From an uncultured Methylococcaceae bacterium (GTDB lineage: Bacteria; Pseudomonadota; Gammaproteobacteria; Methylococcales; Methylomonadaceae), in assembly GCA_903866825.1 (NCBI GenBank), contig CAIPPE010000203.1:1-39599 (forward strand): 39,599 nt of DNA, read 5' to 3'. The notes beneath the pieces were generated by a model. That model was not told the DNA's origin. It saw only the letters and a list, made by a program, of their open reading frames with translations, and made no database searches. Shown here piece by piece: positions 1-7,549 of the stretch. The position numbers and the translations under genes were made by a program. The first letter of the stretch is position 1, and every line of letters begins with the position of its first letter.

Positions 1-1
1 C

Positions 2-136
2 AGAACAGAATCTTATGCGCTGGCTTATTGTCGAATATCGAGCTATCTACAAACGATGGCGAACAAAGGATACAACCCACTAATAGCGATTCAAATAGCA
101 TTGGCTGGCGAATTAGACTTGTCTGGGGGAGAGTAG
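2..136 (+). pseudogene. IS66-family transposase (TnpC), C-terminal end only
   Basis: An open frame enters from the window edge and ends at TAG 134-136, giving 44 residues. The part reading YCRISSYLQTMANKGYNPL, followed by ALAGEL, resembles the extreme C-terminus of IS66 TnpC transposases, where a CRIRSYI-type helix precedes a Lys-Gln-Gly-x-N turn and a short tail. The rest of the gene lies outside the window, so it may be intact upstream or only a remnant. It marks this end of the window as a mobile-element neighbourhood. The family call rests on remembered motif similarity, not on a search. Confidence 0.5.
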
Positions 137-475
137 TTACTATTGATGGATGCTTGATTTGCCCTTGGCGTTTTTCAATCGCCGAGGGTTCCGGGTGGTT
201 TGTAGGCCTCTGGAGGGGGTTCTTCCACAGGACCCCTATCTGCCGAAATTACCTGTTTAATTTCTAATGCTCCGGTGTAGGCTATTGAGCGTTGGCTTGA
301 TCGTATTATTGATGCTCAACAATTATCTGACATATTCAAAGACGATTTATGAAGCGGTGTGTGTGGGGACAGGTTCTCGGCATTCTACATCCCCGATTTT
401 AAGTTTACACTGAATCTCTTGACCCTCTTATTTCAATTCAAACTCCAGATAGATTATCTTTTTGATTTCTTGACG
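137..475. other. gene-poor stretch with a possible nuclease-tail remnant
   Basis: No convincing gene is visible. On the plus strand, 281-352 reads AIERWLDRIIDAQQLSDIF and then stops. It is preceded immediately by an in-frame TAG. The phrase resembles the C-terminal tail of Rpn/DUF4351-type nuclease proteins, so this may be a scrap of such a gene. The longer frames here are rich in Phe, Leu and Ile and look like non-coding translation. Confidence 0.25.
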
Positions 476-658
476 CTACAACTTTGTTTTTTCATATTCC
501 ATTTCTCCATTTCTATTGATAGCTCCACACCCTTGCTTCCATTGCAAGTATTGATAATCATAATCAAAAATATTTAAGGCAAATTCATCCTTAACCCCAT
601 AATAAAGATCATTAGTGATTTTCCCTTTTTTTAACTCCATGAAGTCTGGAATTGGCAT
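476..658 (-). CDS. small hypothetical protein (60 aa)
   Basis: A short minus-strand frame begins at MPIPDFMELKKGK, 8 bases after the stop of the 234-codon ORF upstream, and ends at 476. The frame stays open back to 754, but that part overlaps the neighbouring gene, so the ATG at 658 is the more economical start. The protein is hydrophilic and aromatic (DYDYQYLQW), with no signal peptide, membrane segment or motif I recognise. Its tight spacing suggests co-transcription with the upstream ORF. An immunity or effector partner is conceivable given the accessory setting, but nothing in the sequence establishes it. It may also be non-coding. Confidence 0.35.
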   Translation of the reverse strand: MPIPDFMELKKGKITNDLYYGVKDEFALNIFDYDYQYLQWKQGCGAINRNGEMEYEKTKL

Positions 659-665
659 AGGTTTT

Positions 666-1370
666 TTATTTGTTTTGCTTGTATAATTTATCAACAAAGA
701 TGGCAGCATCACTTTGTGTTGAAAAGCACACATAGTAATAAGGCACGTAGTCATGCCGATTCTTGTAGCTGGCTAAAATAGGCTTATCATCTAAATAAAT
801 CCCATAATAATCTTTATATTCTGATCTAGGCAATACTGTTGCAGAAATTGTTTTAGTACCAGAGATGAATTCAACCTTATCATCAGCTTCTTCAATTGTA
901 TCACCACCATCCTTAACGTGACGGAGAACATAATCAAGCGTTACGTTAGCCTTTATATTATTTTGAATACTGGGCGGAGTAATTATTTTATATACTATTT
1001 CGTTTTTCAAGAAAGATATCATAGTTAATTTGCAAGCTTTCTCTGGCTTAATATTTAGACAATTTGTGCCAACAGAGAGCGAAACATTTATGACTGTATT
1101 TCCAGTTAACGGCAAACCATTTTGGACGCTATGTTTTTGAACCTTTAATGTATCTGCATGCCCATAGCATTTATGCTTCTCTTCATTATCTTCATTTCTG
1201 TTTTTTATTTTAGATTTATCTTTACAACTCAGCGAGACAGTCAATTGTTCTACAGGCAGAAAGACGCTTAGATTTTTTGTTATGGTATTGTTTTCTGTTG
1301 AATTAGCTGATACTTGTCCAACTTTGTGTAAAATCGCAACATTTTCCAGTACGTTCACATACTTTCTCAA
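666..1370 (-). CDS. hypothetical protein (234 aa), unrecognised
   Basis: This is an uninterrupted minus-strand frame. The first start codon is TTG at 1370, with only a poor AGAG-like ribosome site, so the true start is uncertain. The N-terminal third is Asn/Lys/Ser-rich. The C-terminal half looks globular, with alternating beta-like segments (KTISATVLPRSEY, YYGIYLDDKPILASY) and an ending YYYVCFSTQSDAAIFVDKL. There is no obvious signal peptide or membrane span. Codon use is more AT-rich than in the housekeeping genes, consistent with acquired DNA beside the IS66 fragment. I do not recognise the family. It could be a secreted-effector-type or phage-defence accessory gene, but no motif supports either. 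Confidence 0.45.
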   Translation of the reverse strand: MRKYVNVLENVAILHKVGQVSANSTENNTITKNLSVFLPVEQLTVSLSCKDKSKIKNRNEDNEEKHKCYGHADTLKVQKHSVQNGLPLTGNTVINVSLSVGTNCLNIKPEKACKLTMISFLKNEIVYKIITPPSIQNNIKANVTLDYVLRHVKDGGDTIEEADDKVEFISGTKTISATVLPRSEYKDYYGIYLDDKPILASYKNRHDYVPYYYVCFSTQSDAAIFVDKLYKQNK

Positions 1371-1990
1371 TTCTCTATTTCTAGCAGGATTAGGACGGAA
1401 ACTATTTATAGCTATTATTAATAAATTAGTTTAAAGATTCAACACAATAGCAACTGACCCTAATACTGCTACCGCAAATCTAATACATAAATATCATAGG
1501 CTTGAGCATGCCTCGATTTTTGGCGTGTTCAATAAAGGAAAAGGTTTTAGTCGACGTTTGACAGCTCTCGGCTGGTTCTTTCGTTTTAAATAGCAGGGTA
1601 GAGTAAACTTAAATATAAATTTATTCTGAAGCCTACGCCCCAATTCTTAGAAACTCCAACGTATTCATTGTTCGGTAGCAAATTTTTTATACAGGCCAGT
1701 TCGGTAACTCCAAACCGATTAAATCCGGCGTATATCCAAATACCCTCTTTCTTCTGTATAACGCATCATTAAACACCATCAAGCGCAAAGCAAAATCGCC
1801 TGATAATACCCATTCATAAAATAAACAATATTTACCTTGCAGTTTATGTAAATAAGCCTATAGTTCTTGATAAGCCACCTGAATTAGCAATTAATTCTGT
1901 GAATGTACTGGGTAAGCTCTCCTAAATGGCGCTCTGCAACTACGAGCTAGTGTTCGGCAATGATAAATAAATTCCAGCAATTAAAGTTGA
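1371..1990. other. intergenic region, no intact gene
   Basis: About 620 bases lack a credible complete gene. Short coding-like scraps occur. On the plus strand near 1500-1593 there is a phrase ending SRRLTALGWFFRFK before a stop. On the minus strand across roughly 1690-1860 there is a phrase containing ALYRRKRVFGYTPDLIGLEL with stops on both sides. They look like decayed genes, but I cannot name the parents. The last ~60 bases may hold very degenerate in-phase units of the array that starts at 1991. Confidence 0.4.
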
Positions 1991-2347
1991 CTACTTGAAA
2001 CACCTGTTGAATGAGTTCAGCAACCCGGCCAATTACTTGGCCTATCTGGCGAACTCACTCAGTGACTCAAAAAGTGACTCAAAACACCTGCTGGTCCACT
2101 GAGAAAACATTTTAGACTGCTTCAAAAATCCAGTGGAGTGCTGGAGGATCACTCGTATTCTTTTTGTTAAATCGGCCCAGTGCTTAAACAAAACTTTGCA
2201 TTACTTTAAAAGGTTGGGCAAGTAGTTCAACGTATTTCTACAATAATCCACTGACCTTTTGTAGCTTTCAAGTGATCTTTTGCAGTACTTCAGCGTAAAG
2301 TGCCAGTACTCCACCGCATTTTTACACCAGTCAAAAGTCATTATTTT
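1991..2347. repeat. degenerate tandem array, 17 units with an exact 21-bp phase
   Basis: Cutting the plus strand every 21 bases from 1991 (2012, 2033, and so on to 2327) gives 17 units with no insertion or deletion. In the plus-strand register position 5 is T in 16 of 17 units, position 8 is A in 14 and position 21 is A in 13. Positions 2-6 approximate TACTT. No two units are identical, so this is an old or functionally constrained repeat rather than a recent duplication. Two further units at 2390 and 2411 are roughly in phase, which would extend the array to 2431 with weak units between. Read on the minus strand the units encode imperfect heptads such as CKRSLES, YKRSVDY and CRNTLNY, broken by stops. 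21 bp is two DNA helical turns and also seven codons. The function is unknown. Confidence 0.75.
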
Positions 2348-2430
2348 TATAGAGTCATGACTTTCTAGCGCCAAATTAAGATTGTTTAAACAGTGCTAAA
2401 GAGTGGGACAGTGATCAATCGTTTTGGCTA

Positions 2431-2494
2431 GATGCAGAGTTCTAATAGCGGGAAGCTAAAAAATCATTGCAGACAGTTCATAAAGTTCTGCATC
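2431..2494. repeat. 8-bp inverted repeat ahead of the Fn3-like gene
   Basis: GATGCAGA at 2431-2438 is matched by its exact reverse complement TCTGCATC at 2487-2494, enclosing 48 bases. It lies between the 21-bp array and the start codon at 2533 and could close a folded leader RNA or be an operator pair. There is no T tract, so it does not look like a terminator. An 8-bp match with a long loop can occur by chance. Confidence 0.3.
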
Positions 2495-2532
2495 ACGTTT
2501 TAATTTGATCTTTAGAAAGGAACTAAATTATT

Positions 2533-3222
2533 ATGAGTACAACTACATTTATGCCGAGTACTGACAGTGGTAAGGCAGACTTGCTGAACCATCTGACAAT
2601 CGCCTTGCCACCTTATGCTAACTTGCTGAATATTTCTGGAGAGGAGTTGGCCATACTAAATGATGATACCATCAGCTTTAGTTATACCATTCAAAGTGCT
2701 GGTGATATGCAAGCCTGCTCTAAAAGCTGGACGGCTTTTAAAAATCAGCTGCGTGATGGCGCAAGTGGTTCAATGAGTTTTCCAAAAACACCTACAGCGA
2801 TTCAACCCGTTCCATCGGTTGTTAACGAGGGAGTTGTACCTCGATTATCGGCGTTAGTTGGACAGATTAAAGCCAATAAAAATTACACGGATGCCATTGG
2901 CAAAGACCTATGGTTAATCGGTACGGCACAAATTATTGATCCGAGCACCTGGAAACCTATTTTAAGTATCCAGAATCAAGCCGGACATCCGATTATATGC
3001 TGGACAAAAGGCAGAGCAGCCGCGATAGAAATTTGGGTAGATCGGGGTGATGGCAATAATTTTACACACTTAGCCATTAATACCGAACCCAACACCACCG
3101 ACAAATACCTTCTCCCTGTAACAGGCAACAGCCAGGTCTGGAAGTATAAAGCCATCTACTTATTACATGATGAACAGGTGGGGCAGTGGAGTGATGTAAT
3201 AAGTGTATCGGTGGGAGGGTAA
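2533..3222 (+). CDS. fibronectin-III-like domain protein of unknown function (229 aa)
   Basis: The N-terminal ~130 residues look largely helical (SKADLLNHLTIALPPYANLL-like amphipathic stretches, and later RLSALVGQIKANKNYTDAIG). The C-terminal ~90 residues look like an Fn3-type beta sandwich, with IICWTKGRAAAIEIWVDRG, a KYKAIYLL strand and the closing WSDVISVSVGG. This helical-bundle plus Fn3 layout matches a family of uncharacterised bacterial proteins known to me only by architecture. No signal peptide or membrane segment is visible, so it is probably cytoplasmic or released by an unknown route. AAAGGA at 2516-2521 is a plausible ribosome site 11 bases before ATG. The gene stands alone, with the 21-bp array upstream and a hairpin terminator downstream. 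Alternatives include a phage-like or scaffold protein. Confidence 0.7.
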   Translation: MSTTTFMPSTDSGKADLLNHLTIALPPYANLLNISGEELAILNDDTISFSYTIQSAGDMQACSKSWTAFKNQLRDGASGSMSFPKTPTAIQPVPSVVNEGVVPRLSALVGQIKANKNYTDAIGKDLWLIGTAQIIDPSTWKPILSIQNQAGHPIICWTKGRAAAIEIWVDRGDGNNFTHLAINTEPNTTDKYLLPVTGNSQVWKYKAIYLLHDEQVGQWSDVISVSVGG

Positions 3223-3269
3223 TTCGGAAAATACACGGGTTTTGATCATTACTTAATTTAACTATTATA

Positions 3270-3303
3270 AAATGTAGAGATAGGTCGCGGTCTTTACATT
3301 TTT
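3270..3303. terminator. Rho-independent terminator, possibly bidirectional
   Basis: AAATGTAGAGA (3270-3280) pairs with TCTTTACATTT (3291-3301) through one G-U pair, around a 10-base loop, and is followed by further T residues. It lies between the convergent ends of the Fn3-like gene and the DUF5615 gene, so it could serve both. Confidence 0.7.
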
Positions 3304-3309
3304 CAATTG

Positions 3310-3642
3310 TCAGGTGATACGAATAAATGAAACACCATCGTTTTCATAAAACGTTGTTATTAGTGCCACTTTATTTCTCAGTATCAATTGAATTTGTCTG
3401 TTGGTGCTGTTACCACATTTTATTAAAATTACTTTGGGTGGATGTCCGTATAAAATGCTTTTTTCGTAGAAATCAGAATCCTTACTTACGATCATAAAGC
3501 TATTTTCTTTGGCATAACGCCAAACGTCATCATCGGAATCGCCACCTAACCCAATCCGGTCAACATGAGCGGAATCGGGAAAAACATCCGCCAAGGCTAT
3601 AACCATTTTAGGTGATAGATTTTCATCAAATAACAATTTCAT
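3310..3642 (-). CDS. DUF5615 PIN-like protein, probable toxin of a TA pair
   Basis: This 110-residue protein begins KLLFDENLSPK and carries VSKDSDFYEK in the middle. The early Asp-Glu-Asn and the later Asp-Ser-Asp-Phe are the acidic clusters typical of the DUF5615 / Mut7-C-like PIN fold, which is thought to act as a ribonuclease. Its ATG overlaps the stop of the DUF433 gene by 4 bases (ATGA), so the two are translationally coupled. This order, small DUF433 gene first and DUF5615 second, is a recurrent putative toxin-antitoxin pairing. Length and motifs appear intact. Toxicity is inferred from family and context only. Confidence 0.8.
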   Translation of the reverse strand: MKLLFDENLSPKMVIALADVFPDSAHVDRIGLGGDSDDDVWRYAKENSFMIVSKDSDFYEKSILYGHPPKVILIKCGNSTNRQIQLILRNKVALITTFYENDGVSFIRIT

Positions 3643-3869
3643 CCGGTAATAACTCGGGTATGACGTTCTCTATCGGCGGCATAAGAAAAACACGCTCTAA
3701 TATCATCCTGAGTTAAATAATCATAATCTTCTAAAATTTCTTGTTCTGTCATGCCAGCGGCAAAACAATCGAGAATATCGTCGACGGTAATGCGCAAACC
3801 CCTAATACAGGGTTTTCCGCTACGTTTTCCGGGTTCAATGGTGATAATGTTGTGATAGTCAATGTTCAT
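3639..3869 (-). CDS. DUF433 domain protein, probable antitoxin
   Basis: The 76-residue protein reads IEPGKRSGKPCIRGLRITV near its start, the signature of DUF433. It continues with MTEQEILEDYDYLTQDDIRA, a helix-turn-helix-like segment that resembles a winged or RHH-like DNA-binding fold. It heads a two-gene unit with the DUF5615 gene and would be expected to bind that partner and autoregulate. Divergently upstream (3870-4057) is AT-rich intergenic DNA that separates it from the tgt promoter. The family is confident; the antitoxin role is inferred from the pairing. Confidence 0.8.
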   Translation of the reverse strand: MNIDYHNIITIEPGKRSGKPCIRGLRITVDDILDCFAAGMTEQEILEDYDYLTQDDIRACFSYAADRERHTRVITG

Positions 3870-4057
3870 AGCTTGCTGATAGCGAGGCTGTTACCCCATT
3901 TTGCGACTTGCATAGTCAGATCCTGTGCATATTGATATACAAAACTTATTATATATCCGTAATTCATAAGCACACCATGCTTAATTTTGACGTAGGGTTA
4001 ATGGTAGTTTAGATGCTTTAGTTAATCATAGTTTTCTGTTTGATAAATAAAGCAGTG

Positions 4058-4087
4058 TTGCGCAATTGCCTAAAAAGGCAGGATAAT
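4058..4087 (+). promoter_or_regulatory. candidate sigma-70 promoter for tgt-yajC-secDF
   Basis: TTGCGC at 4058-4063 and GATAAT at 4082-4087 are spaced by 18 bases and end 33 bases before the tgt ATG. A small inverted repeat, TGCCT/AGGCA, lies in the spacer. The -35 element is imperfect, so the call is moderate. Confidence 0.45.
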
Positions 4088-4099
4088 CTGCACCCTTGA

Positions 4100-5236
<1,137 letters not shown>

Positions 5237-5277
5237 TGGCGAAATTTTTTAAAATACAATAATAACTGAGGATAATT

Positions 5278-5631
5278 ATGAGTTTTTTTATTTCTGACGC
5301 ATTAGCGGCAGCGCCCGCAGCAGCACAACCAGGCATTGAAGGCATGCTGTTTCCACTCGGTATTTTAGCGTTTTTTTACTTTTTATTTTTACGTCCTCAA
5401 TCAAAACGTACTAAAGAAAAGAAGCAGATGATTGCTGCGCTGGGTAAAGGGGTGGAAGTCGTTACTTCGGGTGGTATTTTAGGTAAGGTCGTTGATCTGG
5501 ATGATAACTTTGTAAAACTTGAAGTGAGTGAAAATTCGTTTATTCAAGTACAGCGTCAAAGCATTGAGAGCATGATGCCTAAAGGAACTTATAAAGCAAT
5601 CACTAAAAAAGTAACTATTAATAAAGCTTAA
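5278..5631 (+). CDS. yajC: preprotein translocase accessory subunit YajC
   Basis: A single-span inner-membrane partner of SecDF that joins the holotranslocon. The 117-residue protein has an Ala-rich N-terminal leader, one transmembrane helix (GILAFFYFLFLRPQ) ending in the diagnostic FLRPQ, and then a basic cytoplasmic domain with VTSGGILGKVV. Length is close to the family norm. A GAGG-type ribosome site precedes the ATG (ctgaggataatt). It lies 41 bases after tgt and 70 bases before secD, consistent with one operon. Confidence 0.97.
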   Translation: MSFFISDALAAAPAAAQPGIEGMLFPLGILAFFYFLFLRPQSKRTKEKKQMIAALGKGVEVVTSGGILGKVVDLDDNFVKLEVSENSFIQVQRQSIESMMPKGTYKAITKKVTINKA

Positions 5632-5701
5632 TGTGATAGCGCGAAGCAGAGTCAAAGCAATGGACTTTGTTTGGAGCGCAGTTTAATTATTGGAATAACA
5701 C

Positions 5702-7549
5702 ATGCAAAACCATTATCCACTTTGGAAAAATTTATTAGTTCTGATTATTTTTGGTATCGGAATTATTTACTCATTACCTAATTTGTACGGCGATGACCCT
5801 TCCGTTCAGGTGTCATCAACCCAAGCGACTAATATTACACAAGATCAATCAAATCAGATCGAGTCTGATATTAAAGCATCGGGTGTGCCTGTAAAAGCGT
5901 TTGAGTTTAAAGACGGTCGTATTTTAGCGCGATTTACCAATACCGATGATCAGCTTAAAGTGGCTGATTTATTAAGAGATAAAATGGGTAGCAATTATAC
6001 GGTTGCTCTAAATCTGGCGCCAACCACACCGACCTGGTTACGTGCTTTAGGTGCACAGGCTATGTATCTTGGTTTGGACTTACGCGGAGGTGTGCATTTT
6101 CTAATGGAAGTGGATATGGATGCAGCGGTAAAGCAGGCTGAAGACCGTAATATAGATGATATTCGTTTAGCGTTAAGAAATGCAAAATTACGCTATCAAA
6201 CGGTTGCAAAAGATAATGGCTTTTTTAAAGTCACGTTAAAGTCTGCAGAAGATAAGACAGAAATTTTGACTGCTTTAGATAAAGATTTTCATAATCTTGA
6301 GATTACTGAACCAGAAGCACAGGATCAAATCTGGTTAAAATTATCGGATAAAGAAATCCGTGAAATCAAGAAATTTGCTGTAGCGCAAAACATGACCACG
6401 TTACGTAATCGTGTTAATGAATTAGGGGTGGCAGAGCCGGTTATTCAGCAACAAGGTGAAAACCGTATCATGGTGCAATTGCCTGGCGTACAGGATACCA
6501 CCAGAGCGAAAGAAATTTTGGGTACGACAGCGACGCTGGAGTATCGCTTAGTTGATGTTGAGCATGACGTTCAACAAGCTGTATCAGGACATGTGCCCGT
6601 AGGCAGTCGTTTATATAATGACAGAAGTGGGAATCCAATCCTTTTAGATCGTCGGGTTATTGTTACTGGTGATCAAATCGTGGATGCGTCTTCTGGTCAG
6701 GATCAGGATGGCCGGCCTTCGGTTAATATTTCCTTGAATGGCGTGGGTGCAGCAAAGATGGCTAAAACTACACAAGTGAGTGTAGGGAAGCCAATGGCTG
6801 TTGTATTCATTGAATATAAGGTAGAAACAAAAATAGTGGATGGTCAAAAAGTCCGTCACAAAGAGAAAGTAGAAAAAGTGATTAACGTTGCGACGATACA
6901 AGGTGCATTTAGTAAGCGTTTCCAAACGACTGGCTTGGATAGTCCGCAAGAAGCCAGAAATTTATCGTTGTTATTGAGAGCGGGAGCTTTAGCGGCGCCA
7001 GTTGATATTGTTGAAGAACGTACAGTCGGTCCTAGTTTAGGACAAGATAACATTGATAAGGGCATGTTATCGTTTGTGGTGGGTTTTGCCTTGGTTGTAT
7101 TGTTTATGGCGGTTTATTATCGTCTTTTTGGCGTGATAGCCAATTTTGCGTTAGCTTTTAACGTGGTGATTGTGGTCGCTATTCTGTCTATGTTGCAAGC
7201 AACGTTAACATTGCCGGGTATTGCAGGGATTATCTTGACGGTAGGTATGTCGGTTGATGCTAACGTATTGATTTTTGAGCGTATCAAAGAAGAACTCAAA
7301 CATGGCATAACACCGCAGGCGGCTATTTTTATTGGTTACGATAAAGCCTTTGCAACCATTCTTGACTCTCACTTTACCAACCTTGTCGTGGCGGTAGTTT
7401 TGTTTGCTTTTGGTACCGGTTCAGTAAAAGGTTTCGCGGTAACGCTGATTATCGGGATTTTATCCTCTATGTTTACAGCGATTACGGGAACGCGGATGGT
7501 TATTAACTGGATCTATGGCAATCGTAGAGTTGAGAAGCTATCTATATAG
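5702..7549 (+). CDS. secD: protein translocase subunit SecD
   Basis: Proton-motive-force-driven component that helps pull and release exported proteins on the periplasmic side, in complex with SecF and YajC. The 615 residues match E. coli SecD. An N-terminal transmembrane helix follows HYPLWKNLLVLIIFGIGI. The large periplasmic P1 domain contains YLGLDLRGGVHFLMEVD and MTTLRNRVNELGVAEP. The C-terminal RND-like bundle contains the conserved SVDANVLIFERIKEEL. No break or oddity is visible. The gene sits between yajC and secF on the same strand. Confidence 0.98.
   Translation: MQNHYPLWKNLLVLIIFGIGIIYSLPNLYGDDPSVQVSSTQATNITQDQSNQIESDIKASGVPVKAFEFKDGRILARFTNTDDQLKVADLLRDKMGSNYTVALNLAPTTPTWLRALGAQAMYLGLDLRGGVHFLMEVDMDAAVKQAEDRNIDDIRLALRNAKLRYQTVAKDNGFFKVTLKSAEDKTEILTALDKDFHNLEITEPEAQDQIWLKLSDKEIREIKKFAVAQNMTTLRNRVNELGVAEPVIQQQGENRIMVQLPGVQDTTRAKEILGTTATLEYRLVDVEHDVQQAVSGHVPVGSRLYNDRSGNPILLDRRVIVTGDQIVDASSGQDQDGRPSVNISLNGVGAAKMAKTTQVSVGKPMAVVFIEYKVETKIVDGQKVRHKEKVEKVINVATIQGAFSKRFQTTGLDSPQEARNLSLLLRAGALAAPVDIVEERTVGPSLGQDNIDKGMLSFVVGFALVVLFMAVYYRLFGVIANFALAFNVVIVVAILSMLQATLTLPGIAGIILTVGMSVDANVLIFERIKEELKHGITPQAAIFIGYDKAFATILDSHFTNLVVAVVLFAFGTGSVKGFAVTLIIGILSSMFTAITGTRMVINWIYGNRRVEKLSI

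What the first reader, a model, noticed from the sequence alone, without database searches (positions are those of the whole stretch)
1991..2431. Degenerate tandem array with an exact 21-bp phase
Seen directly: 17 consecutive 21-base units from 1991 to 2347 align without any gap. Position 5 is T in 16/17, position 8 is A in 14/17 and position 21 is A in 13/17, while the remaining positions vary widely. Units at 2390 and 2411 seem in phase. The strict phase with almost no conserved identity is unlike a recent satellite or a CRISPR (no spacers, no identical repeats). It implies selection on spacing: two helical turns for a protein filament or DNA-binding array, or seven codons for a coding or template function. 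No known feature class explains it.
Basis: seen in the sequence. Interest (0 to 1): 0.8.

Follow-up and report, generated by a model that had tools for sequence, protein, structure and literature searches.

The report
Helix-phased repeat arrays before orphan genes
Upstream of an uncharacterised bacterial gene lies a row of 21-letter DNA repeats, and most copies of that gene family that were examined, in methane-eating and some distantly related bacteria, carry such a row with the same spacing but often quite different letters, which suggests that the spacing along the DNA helix is what matters.

Summary
The array is the 5' half of a module whose other half is the 229-aa gene at 2533-3222, which has no convincing Pfam, NCBIfam, PHROG or PDB-sequence match. 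Of 73 family members tested, 59 have 21 bp (6 more 42) as best period upstream; 57 of 73 score above 8 upstream, 1 of 73 downstream. A 400-kb sample of a related genome holds no such array. Units differ between loci (39 strong arrays, 28 sequence clusters), yet spacing stays 21. Coding is argued against by open frames missing in 13 of 32 loci, mostly even substitutions over codon phase, and register jumps of which 25 of 26 remove exactly one base. Many arrays are self-complementary without overall strand preference, pointing to duplex DNA rather than RNA. Best reading: a cis-acting DNA element phased at two helical turns, probably a docking or regulatory array for the downstream gene. Binding factor and gene function are unknown; seven copies in this genome lack the gene.

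The parts
1673..3299 (+). Repeated module (leader, array, gene, 3' palindrome) shared with L041, L042 and L128 at about 80% identity
   Evidence: blastn ends at 1673 and 3299 in three loci; L041 and L128 share flanking genes (PIN-domain gene and ribF, Pfam on the L041 copies), while the window copy lies elsewhere, near tgt
1861..2510 (+). Conserved non-coding element containing the array; about 10 further places in the same genome match it, four nearly full length and the others in part
1990..2342 (+). Core phased array, about 17 units of exactly 21 bp
1819..1887 (+). Conserved block at the upstream edge of the array, kept also in gene-less copies (L007, L009, L010) and in L127
   Evidence: 80-86% identity blocks
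2533..3222 (+). Gene of an uncharacterised family (229 aa): predicted N-terminal helices and C-terminal Fn3-like sandwich
   Evidence: no convincing Pfam, NCBIfam, PHROG or PDB-sequence match (best PDB-sequence E 0.03); AlphaFold2 mean pLDDT 82.8, pTM 0.53; Foldseek best hits are Fn3 or cytokine-receptor domains, E about 1e-4, query TM about 0.3
3270..3299 (.). Palindromic end of the module (imperfect in this copy, better in L041 and L128), possibly a terminator
   Evidence: right-edge sequences printed; read by eye, function inferred

Best explanation
The array is a non-coding, cis-acting DNA element that forms a two-part module with the gene downstream of it. SHOWN: most examined members of the gene family carry an array directly upstream with a 21-bp period whatever the unit sequence; some arrays differ by whole units; the rare register shifts are, but for one, a single missing base. 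INFERRED: the 21-bp step equals two turns of B-DNA (2 x 10.5 bp), so equivalent positions of every unit face the same side of the helix. The array then acts as a phased platform, either for an oligomerising DNA-binding protein or as in-phase bends, and controls the promoter or the state of the adjacent gene. Because units differ even between paralogs of one genome, recognition is more likely to depend on phase, shape or symmetry (a number of arrays are dyad-symmetric) than on one fixed sequence. The gene product is not obviously the binder: the 24 aligned whole proteins have pI 5.1-6.4, although the N-terminal half is basic in a few (up to 8.9).
For: Association: 65 of 73 members have 21 (59) or 42 (6) as the best period upstream, against 7 of 73 with 21 downstream; score above 8 in 57 of 73 upstream and 1 of 73 downstream. 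Specificity of the period: 54 segments at 21 bp in 706 kb of fetched loci (some loci fetched twice), against 0-5 at nine other periods, and none in 400 kb of control genome. Sequence turnover: 28 clusters among 39 arrays, including four unlike arrays of the window's own genome, L117, L119, L121 and L122. Against coding. Phase: 25 of 26 register jumps in 33 arrays (11,031 bases) are exactly one missing base and none is one added base; the model recovers planted +1, -1, +2, -2, +5 and -5 changes in 66 of 66 tests. Duplex rather than RNA: 32 of 52 arrays have z below -2 against column-permuted arrays on the + strand and 30 of 52 on the - strand, median strand difference z -0.02; mismatches at dyads G-T 132, C-A 167. 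Bends: mean z 0.58 (se 0.19) over 28 cluster representatives with one model.
Against: No transcript, binding or expression data exist here. The period could be inherited without selection if arrays are re-amplified from older arrays. The second bend model gives -0.23, so curvature is not established. Dyad symmetry is strong only in a subset (4 of 28 representatives at z above 2), and single arrays do show strand differences in either direction. Promoter scans do not settle whether the array lies upstream of the promoter (mean z 0.07 before the array in 51 cases, 0.56 after it in 36 cases). Seven array copies in the window's genome have no family gene in the flanks held, up to 1.5 kb (tblastn at E 0.01), and several of them point at the 3' ends of other genes, so not every copy can act as a promoter element. 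Of 73 members, 8 do not have 21 or 42 as best period and 16 score 8 or less. 12 of the 54 period-21 segments were not within 400 bp upstream of a detected family gene. The register jumps are not independent (about 10 array lineages), and one-base deletions are a common kind of mutation anyway. The Verrucomicrobial arrays come from one metagenome-assembled genome.
Confidence: 0.5

Rival explanations
1. RNA leader: the array is transcribed as the 5' untranslated region of the gene and works as a repetitive structured RNA (protein or small-RNA sponge, or translational control).
For: Many arrays run to within tens of bases of the start codon; single arrays fold well against dinucleotide shuffles (z -5.9, -8.9 and -2.4 for L080, L057 and the window).
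Against: No overall strand preference in folding and no excess of G-T over C-A mismatches at dyads, which selection on a sense-strand RNA should produce; an RNA sponge would not need exact 21-base spacing; no Rfam match in window 1-6000.
Confidence: 0.17
2. Passenger satellite: an ancestral 21-bp tandem repeat travels with a multicopy gene module, is re-amplified now and then, and has no function.
For: Dispersed copies, seven without the gene; homogeneous arrays (L132, L159) and degenerate ones (window) fit cycles of amplification and decay; at 14 of 21 identities the 39 arrays merge into 15 clusters, so remote common ancestry is possible.
Against: Arrays persist upstream of paralogs only about 25% identical and in two phyla, Pseudomonadota and Verrucomicrobiota, almost always 5' of the gene; register jumps are nearly confined to one missing base; upstream divergence is below synonymous divergence in 12 of 14 pairs and a little below other non-coding DNA in one orthologous pair (13 of 640 against 29 of 794 sites; modest).
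Confidence: 0.2
3. Mobile or recombination element: the array is a recognition end by which the array-gene module is copied or moved, gene-less arrays being leftovers.
For: The 1.63-kb module occurs at two places of one genome (window and L128) with matching ends; several gene-less copies (e.g. L004, L009) keep the sequence up to the ribosome-binding region; a tyrosine integrase gene lies about 0.8 kb beyond one member, L069.
Against: I saw no recombinase or transposase gene in the other neighbourhoods whose ORFs I read, but neighbours were not annotated systematically, and the L069 member itself has no array directly before it (score 2.3); no target duplication noticed by eye at the ends printed; no match in the plasmid and phage collections and no confirmed relative in viral contigs.
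Confidence: 0.1
4. Heptapeptide-repeat coding sequence (7 codons x 3 = 21), now intact or decayed.
For: Several arrays have long open frames, e.g. L073, L080, L057; a coding repeat would explain a 21-bp period independent of sequence.
Against: Open frames occur on either strand, and 13 of 32 loci including the window have none of 70 aa or more in the region printed; differences are about even over codon phase in most of 28 pairs of related upstream regions (the clear exceptions, L078/L116 and L026/L048, are members without a scored array); 25 one-base register shifts in 13 of 33 arrays.
Confidence: 0.03

Closest known systems
Plasmid replication iterons (R6K, RK2, pSC101 type; recalled)
   Same: Direct repeats of about 17-22 bp spaced near two helical turns, so that a protein binds along one face of the DNA
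   Different: No replication initiator gene; several loci on one chromosome with unlike unit sequences; gene family without a known domain in Pfam
Type II plasmid centromeres such as R1 parC (recalled)
   Same: A phased repeat array directly upstream of the gene it may regulate
   Different: About 11-bp iterons and an actin/ParR operon there; here 21 bp and a protein predicted to be helical plus Fn3-like
TAACTGA intergenic heptamer repeats of Beggiatoaceae (MacGregor 2015, PMC4679880; abstract and section list read)
   Same: Short direct repeats just upstream of start codons in gammaproteobacteria and some distant lineages, binding factor unknown
   Different: One fixed 7-bp sequence upstream of unrelated genes; here one gene family, 21-bp period, many sequences. 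TAACTGA occurs 7 times in the window, none in the array
Repeat-number promoter contingency loci (e.g. Haemophilus hmw; recalled)
   Same: Tandem repeats upstream of a gene, unit number differing between relatives (21- or 42-bp steps in 4 of 28 pairs)
   Different: The window's array is degenerate; phase variation was not looked for

Membership tests
Plasmid iteron array | Tandem direct repeats spaced close to two helical turns | tested here: met
   21 bp
Plasmid iteron array | Adjacent replication initiator (Rep) gene | tested here: not met
   Downstream protein has no Pfam or NCBIfam match of note and an Fn3-like C-terminal fold is predicted
Plasmid iteron array | Carried on a replicon whose copy number it controls | tested here: not met
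   Six members with period-21 DNA upstream lie on one 4.8-Mb contig of G018 (L129-L134); no plasmid hits. Copy-number control itself is not testable here
CRISPR array | Near-identical repeats separated by unique spacers | tested here: not met
   Head-to-tail units without spacers
Heptapeptide-repeat coding sequence | One open frame kept through the array, with codon-biased substitutions | tested here: not met
TAACTGA direct-repeat system | Consecutive TAACTGA heptamers before start codons | tested here: not met
   No TAACTGA in the array
Described RNA family | Rfam covariance model at gathering score | tested here: not met
   0 matches in window 1-6000; other arrays not searched
Protein-bound helically phased operator array | A protein bound with two-turn periodicity in vivo | not testable with these tools
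   Needs footprinting or ChIP
Protein-bound helically phased operator array | Register shifts limited to those that nearly keep the helical face | tested here: met
   25 of 26 jumps are one base short, detection unbiased; jumps are not all independent, about 10 array lineages

The most novel reading that the evidence does not exclude
A previously undescribed class of genetic element: a gene family in which most members carry their own upstream array that is recognised by helical phase or shape, not by sequence, so that unit sequences are free to turn over while the two-turn spacing is kept across phyla.
Probability: 0.4. Interest if true: 0.9.

Novelty: categorically new. Interest (0 to 1): 0.78.

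Why it matters
Regulatory DNA is normally recognised by sequence. Here the sequence changes from one paralog to the next within a genome while a 21-bp step and the position upstream of one gene family are kept in Methylococcales, in Gallionellales and other Nitrosomonadales, and in a Verrucomicrobial genome. That would be a natural case of spacing or shape as the inherited signal, and it can be tested with simple insertions of 5 or 10 bp. It also gives a first handle on an unnamed multicopy protein family. My six paper searches (in the held open-access PubMed Central library only) did not turn up a description; most subscription papers and bioRxiv are not held there.

Tried and rejected
Coding heptads: argued against. 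RNA structure: weakened by the lack of overall strand preference. Within-unit covariation beyond the consensus dyad: weak (largest within-minus-between difference 0.16, otherwise 0.06-0.11, in 22 arrays). DNA curvature: against column-permuted arrays both models are positive (mean z 0.95 and 0.57, 52 arrays), but against natural 21-mers they disagree (0.58 and -0.23, 28 representatives). Sigma-70-like promoter search: inconclusive, a slight excess between array and start codon; a TTGCAG-16-TATAGT match that I noted by eye near window 1843-1870 lay outside the stretch scanned for the window, and its counterpart in L013 did not exceed shuffles (z -0.24). Rfam, plasmid, phage and viral-contig searches gave nothing. 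Strong purifying selection on the array: Ks comparisons suggested it, but against other non-coding DNA of the same pair the effect is modest. An early alignment was misleading because loci from the genome search are not reoriented; it was redone with minus-strand loci turned.

Full report
What was checked first. Lag-21 identity over 1991-2431 is 0.386, against a shuffle mean of 0.258 (sd 0.021, maximum of 2000 shuffles 0.340), and lags 42, 63 and 84 are raised too. Scanning the window at periods 10-45 with one threshold finds only this segment (score 13.7, threshold 12) and its 42-bp harmonic. A cyclic 21-state profile trained on the region puts the core at 1990-2342 without a register jump and does not extend to the units proposed at 2390 and 2411. 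Tandem Repeats Finder does not report the 21-bp array, presumably because the units are too unlike.

The array is one of many. A DNA search of the window's own genome found 13 matches including itself: four others nearly full length at 75-78% identity, the rest partial. In the ten loci fetched, no open frame of 80 aa or more spans the array; one in L005 overlaps its edge. In relatives, 6 of 101 genomes (own included; at most five candidates scored in each) had DNA-level matches, among them G033 (85% and 81%), G012 and G032 (76%) over about 650 bp with nearly no length change.

The constant neighbour is a gene. The 229-aa gene at 2533-3222 starts right after the conserved element. Protein searches found relatives in 31 of 61 genomes of the neighbourhood and 53 loci in public genome contigs labelled Methylococcaceae or Methylococcales, Methylobacter, Crenothrix, Methylumidiphilus, Thiodictyon, Gallionella, Gallionellales, Nitrosomonadales, Verrucomicrobia and Limisphaerales. 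In a broad draw over the phylum only the window's own genome had it (1 of 398). The window's genome shares its GTDB genus with a genome (G031) whose contig length, 2,423,795, equals that of Methylobacter sp. KS41, so I infer a Methylobacter-like methanotroph.

Array and gene go together. For 52 distinct members the best period in the 800 bp upstream, among 10-45, was 21 in 45. With diverged paralogs and further genomes (1000 bp upstream) the set grew to 73: 21 in 59 and 42 in 6. The downstream control (gene and what follows, 1200 bp) had 21 as best in 7 of 73; score above 8 was reached by 57 of 73 upstream and 1 of 73 downstream. The eight with another best period are L021, L037, L048, L053, L069, L078, L116 and L145. 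Members were dropped if the match began after residue 40, if less than 300 bp of upstream DNA was held, or if the last 120 bp equalled another member's. Some of the 73 are close relatives of one another, so they are not 73 independent cases. In 706 kb of fetched DNA, where some contigs appear twice, there were 54 period-21 segments against 0-5 at each of nine other periods; 12 of the 54 were not within 400 bp upstream of a detected family gene, some of them beside partial genes and a few that look like coding repeats. In 400 kb of evenly spaced DNA from the complete-looking genome G018 there were none, against five segments over all other periods from 10 to 45. One distant member in that sample has only weak lag-21 identity, 0.39 at -400 to -100.

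The letters change, the step does not. Units of different members look unrelated, for example TTTCTTCACGTGAATCCCGGA (L132), GATAAGCTACTCGGTGTTCTG (L119), TCTAGCAACCATTGCTAGACA (L080), and L159 has two different blocks in one phase. Consensus units of 39 strong arrays fall into 28 clusters at 16 or more of 21 identities, where 4000 random comparisons reached at most 15; at 15 of 21 there are 23 clusters and at 14 of 21 there are 15. Clustering uses consensus units from the best five-unit stretch only, so distant common ancestry is not excluded.

It does not look coding. No frame is open for 70 aa or more across the window array; 13 of 32 loci, the window included, have none in the region printed, while others have open frames on either strand. 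In 28 pairs of related upstream regions mismatches are mostly even over the three phases (e.g. 39, 30, 32 for the window against G033); two pairs are not, L078/L116 (33, 34, 59) and L026/L048 (6, 8, 20), all four of which score 5.5 or less. Length changes are mostly single bases; whole 21- or 42-bp steps occur in 4 pairs, and other lengths in several. In 33 arrays with 11,031 array bases a profile that treats all shifts alike found 26 register jumps, of which 25 are exactly one missing base and one is four added bases. The same program recovers planted changes of +1, -1, +2, -2, +5 and -5 in 66 of 66 tests. The 25 jumps sit in 13 arrays and come from about 10 array lineages, since two ortholog pairs and one shared higher-order pattern (L023, L034) repeat them. 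The mean step is therefore about 20.96 bp, close to two turns of B-DNA; that comparison is mine.

DNA rather than RNA. Arrays fold better than versions in which the 21 columns are permuted alike in all units: z below -2 in 32 of 52 on the + strand and 30 of 52 on the - strand, with no overall strand bias (median -0.02), though single arrays lean either way, from -4.0 to +3.1; G-T and C-A mismatches at dyads are 132 and 167. Against natural 21-mers the excess of dyad symmetry over 28 cluster representatives is modest (mean z 0.57, se 0.19; 4 above 2), predicted bending is +0.58 by one model and -0.23 by another. Whether the promoter lies before or after the array could not be settled.

Constraint. 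Divergence of the 500 bp upstream is below Ks in 12 of 14 gene pairs (the exceptions, L058/L061 and L020/L021, have Ks of 0.03 and 0.01; the pairs are partly dependent and some are paralogs). In one orthologous pair the array differs at 13 of 640 sites against 29 of 794 other non-coding sites of the neighbourhood (sum mine, leaving out an unalignable stretch of 352 sites), a modest difference.

The protein. No convincing Pfam, NCBIfam, PHROG or PDB-sequence relative. AlphaFold2 gives N-terminal helices, one of about 40 residues, and an Fn3-like C-terminal domain (mean pLDDT 82.8, pTM 0.53); Foldseek finds Fn3 and cytokine-receptor domains at E about 1e-4 with query TM about 0.3. pI is 5.1-6.4 for the 24 aligned whole proteins; first halves reach 8.9.

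Reading. Position, step, unit turnover, one-base-short shifts and duplex symmetry fit a cis-acting DNA platform phased at two helical turns best. The factor, the promoter and the gene's role are not known. Seven array copies in the window's genome (L002, L004-L007, L009, L010) have no family gene within the flanks held, by tblastn at E 0.01; they speak for relics or a second role and are the main unexplained point.

Literature. Six text searches in open-access papers found no description. Of MacGregor 2015 I saw the abstract and the section list; other papers were seen only in search listings.

Noticed in passing
window 3310-3890, minus strand: A DUF5615 (PIN-like) gene with a DUF433 gene before it on the same strand, directly downstream of the module; that such pairs are toxin-antitoxin systems is recalled.
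   Followed up: partly
window 237-420: Repeated stretch also found in L041 and L128 (86-92% identity), perhaps part of an insertion sequence.
   Followed up: no
window 666-1370, minus strand: 234-aa ORF without Pfam or NCBIfam match.
   Followed up: partly
L057 about -378, L080 about -357 (upstream of the gene), L088 about 5650-5690: The first unit of several arrays carries the same palindrome, GTTCATCAAGCCTTGATG (one base different in L088), although later units differ.
   Followed up: no
L154 (array -777 to -235) and L164: A block of units in one orientation is followed by a block of nearly reverse-complement units, in L154 after a one-base register jump.
   Followed up: no
L159 -777 to -680 and L157 -525 to -465: Other short tandem repeats (about 7-8 bp) lie directly before the 21-bp array.
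   Followed up: no
L073 -401 to -8: An open frame with a signal-peptide-like start runs through this array (read by eye); probably incidental.
   Followed up: partly
L048 1503-1667 and L055 511-677: 21-bp arrays more than 1 kb upstream of the family gene; L048 also carries tgt next to its array, as the window has tgt near its module.
   Followed up: partly
L069 7419-8453, minus strand: Tyrosine-integrase gene (Phage_integrase plus SAM-like N-terminal domain) about 0.8 kb beyond a family member that has no array directly before it.
   Followed up: partly
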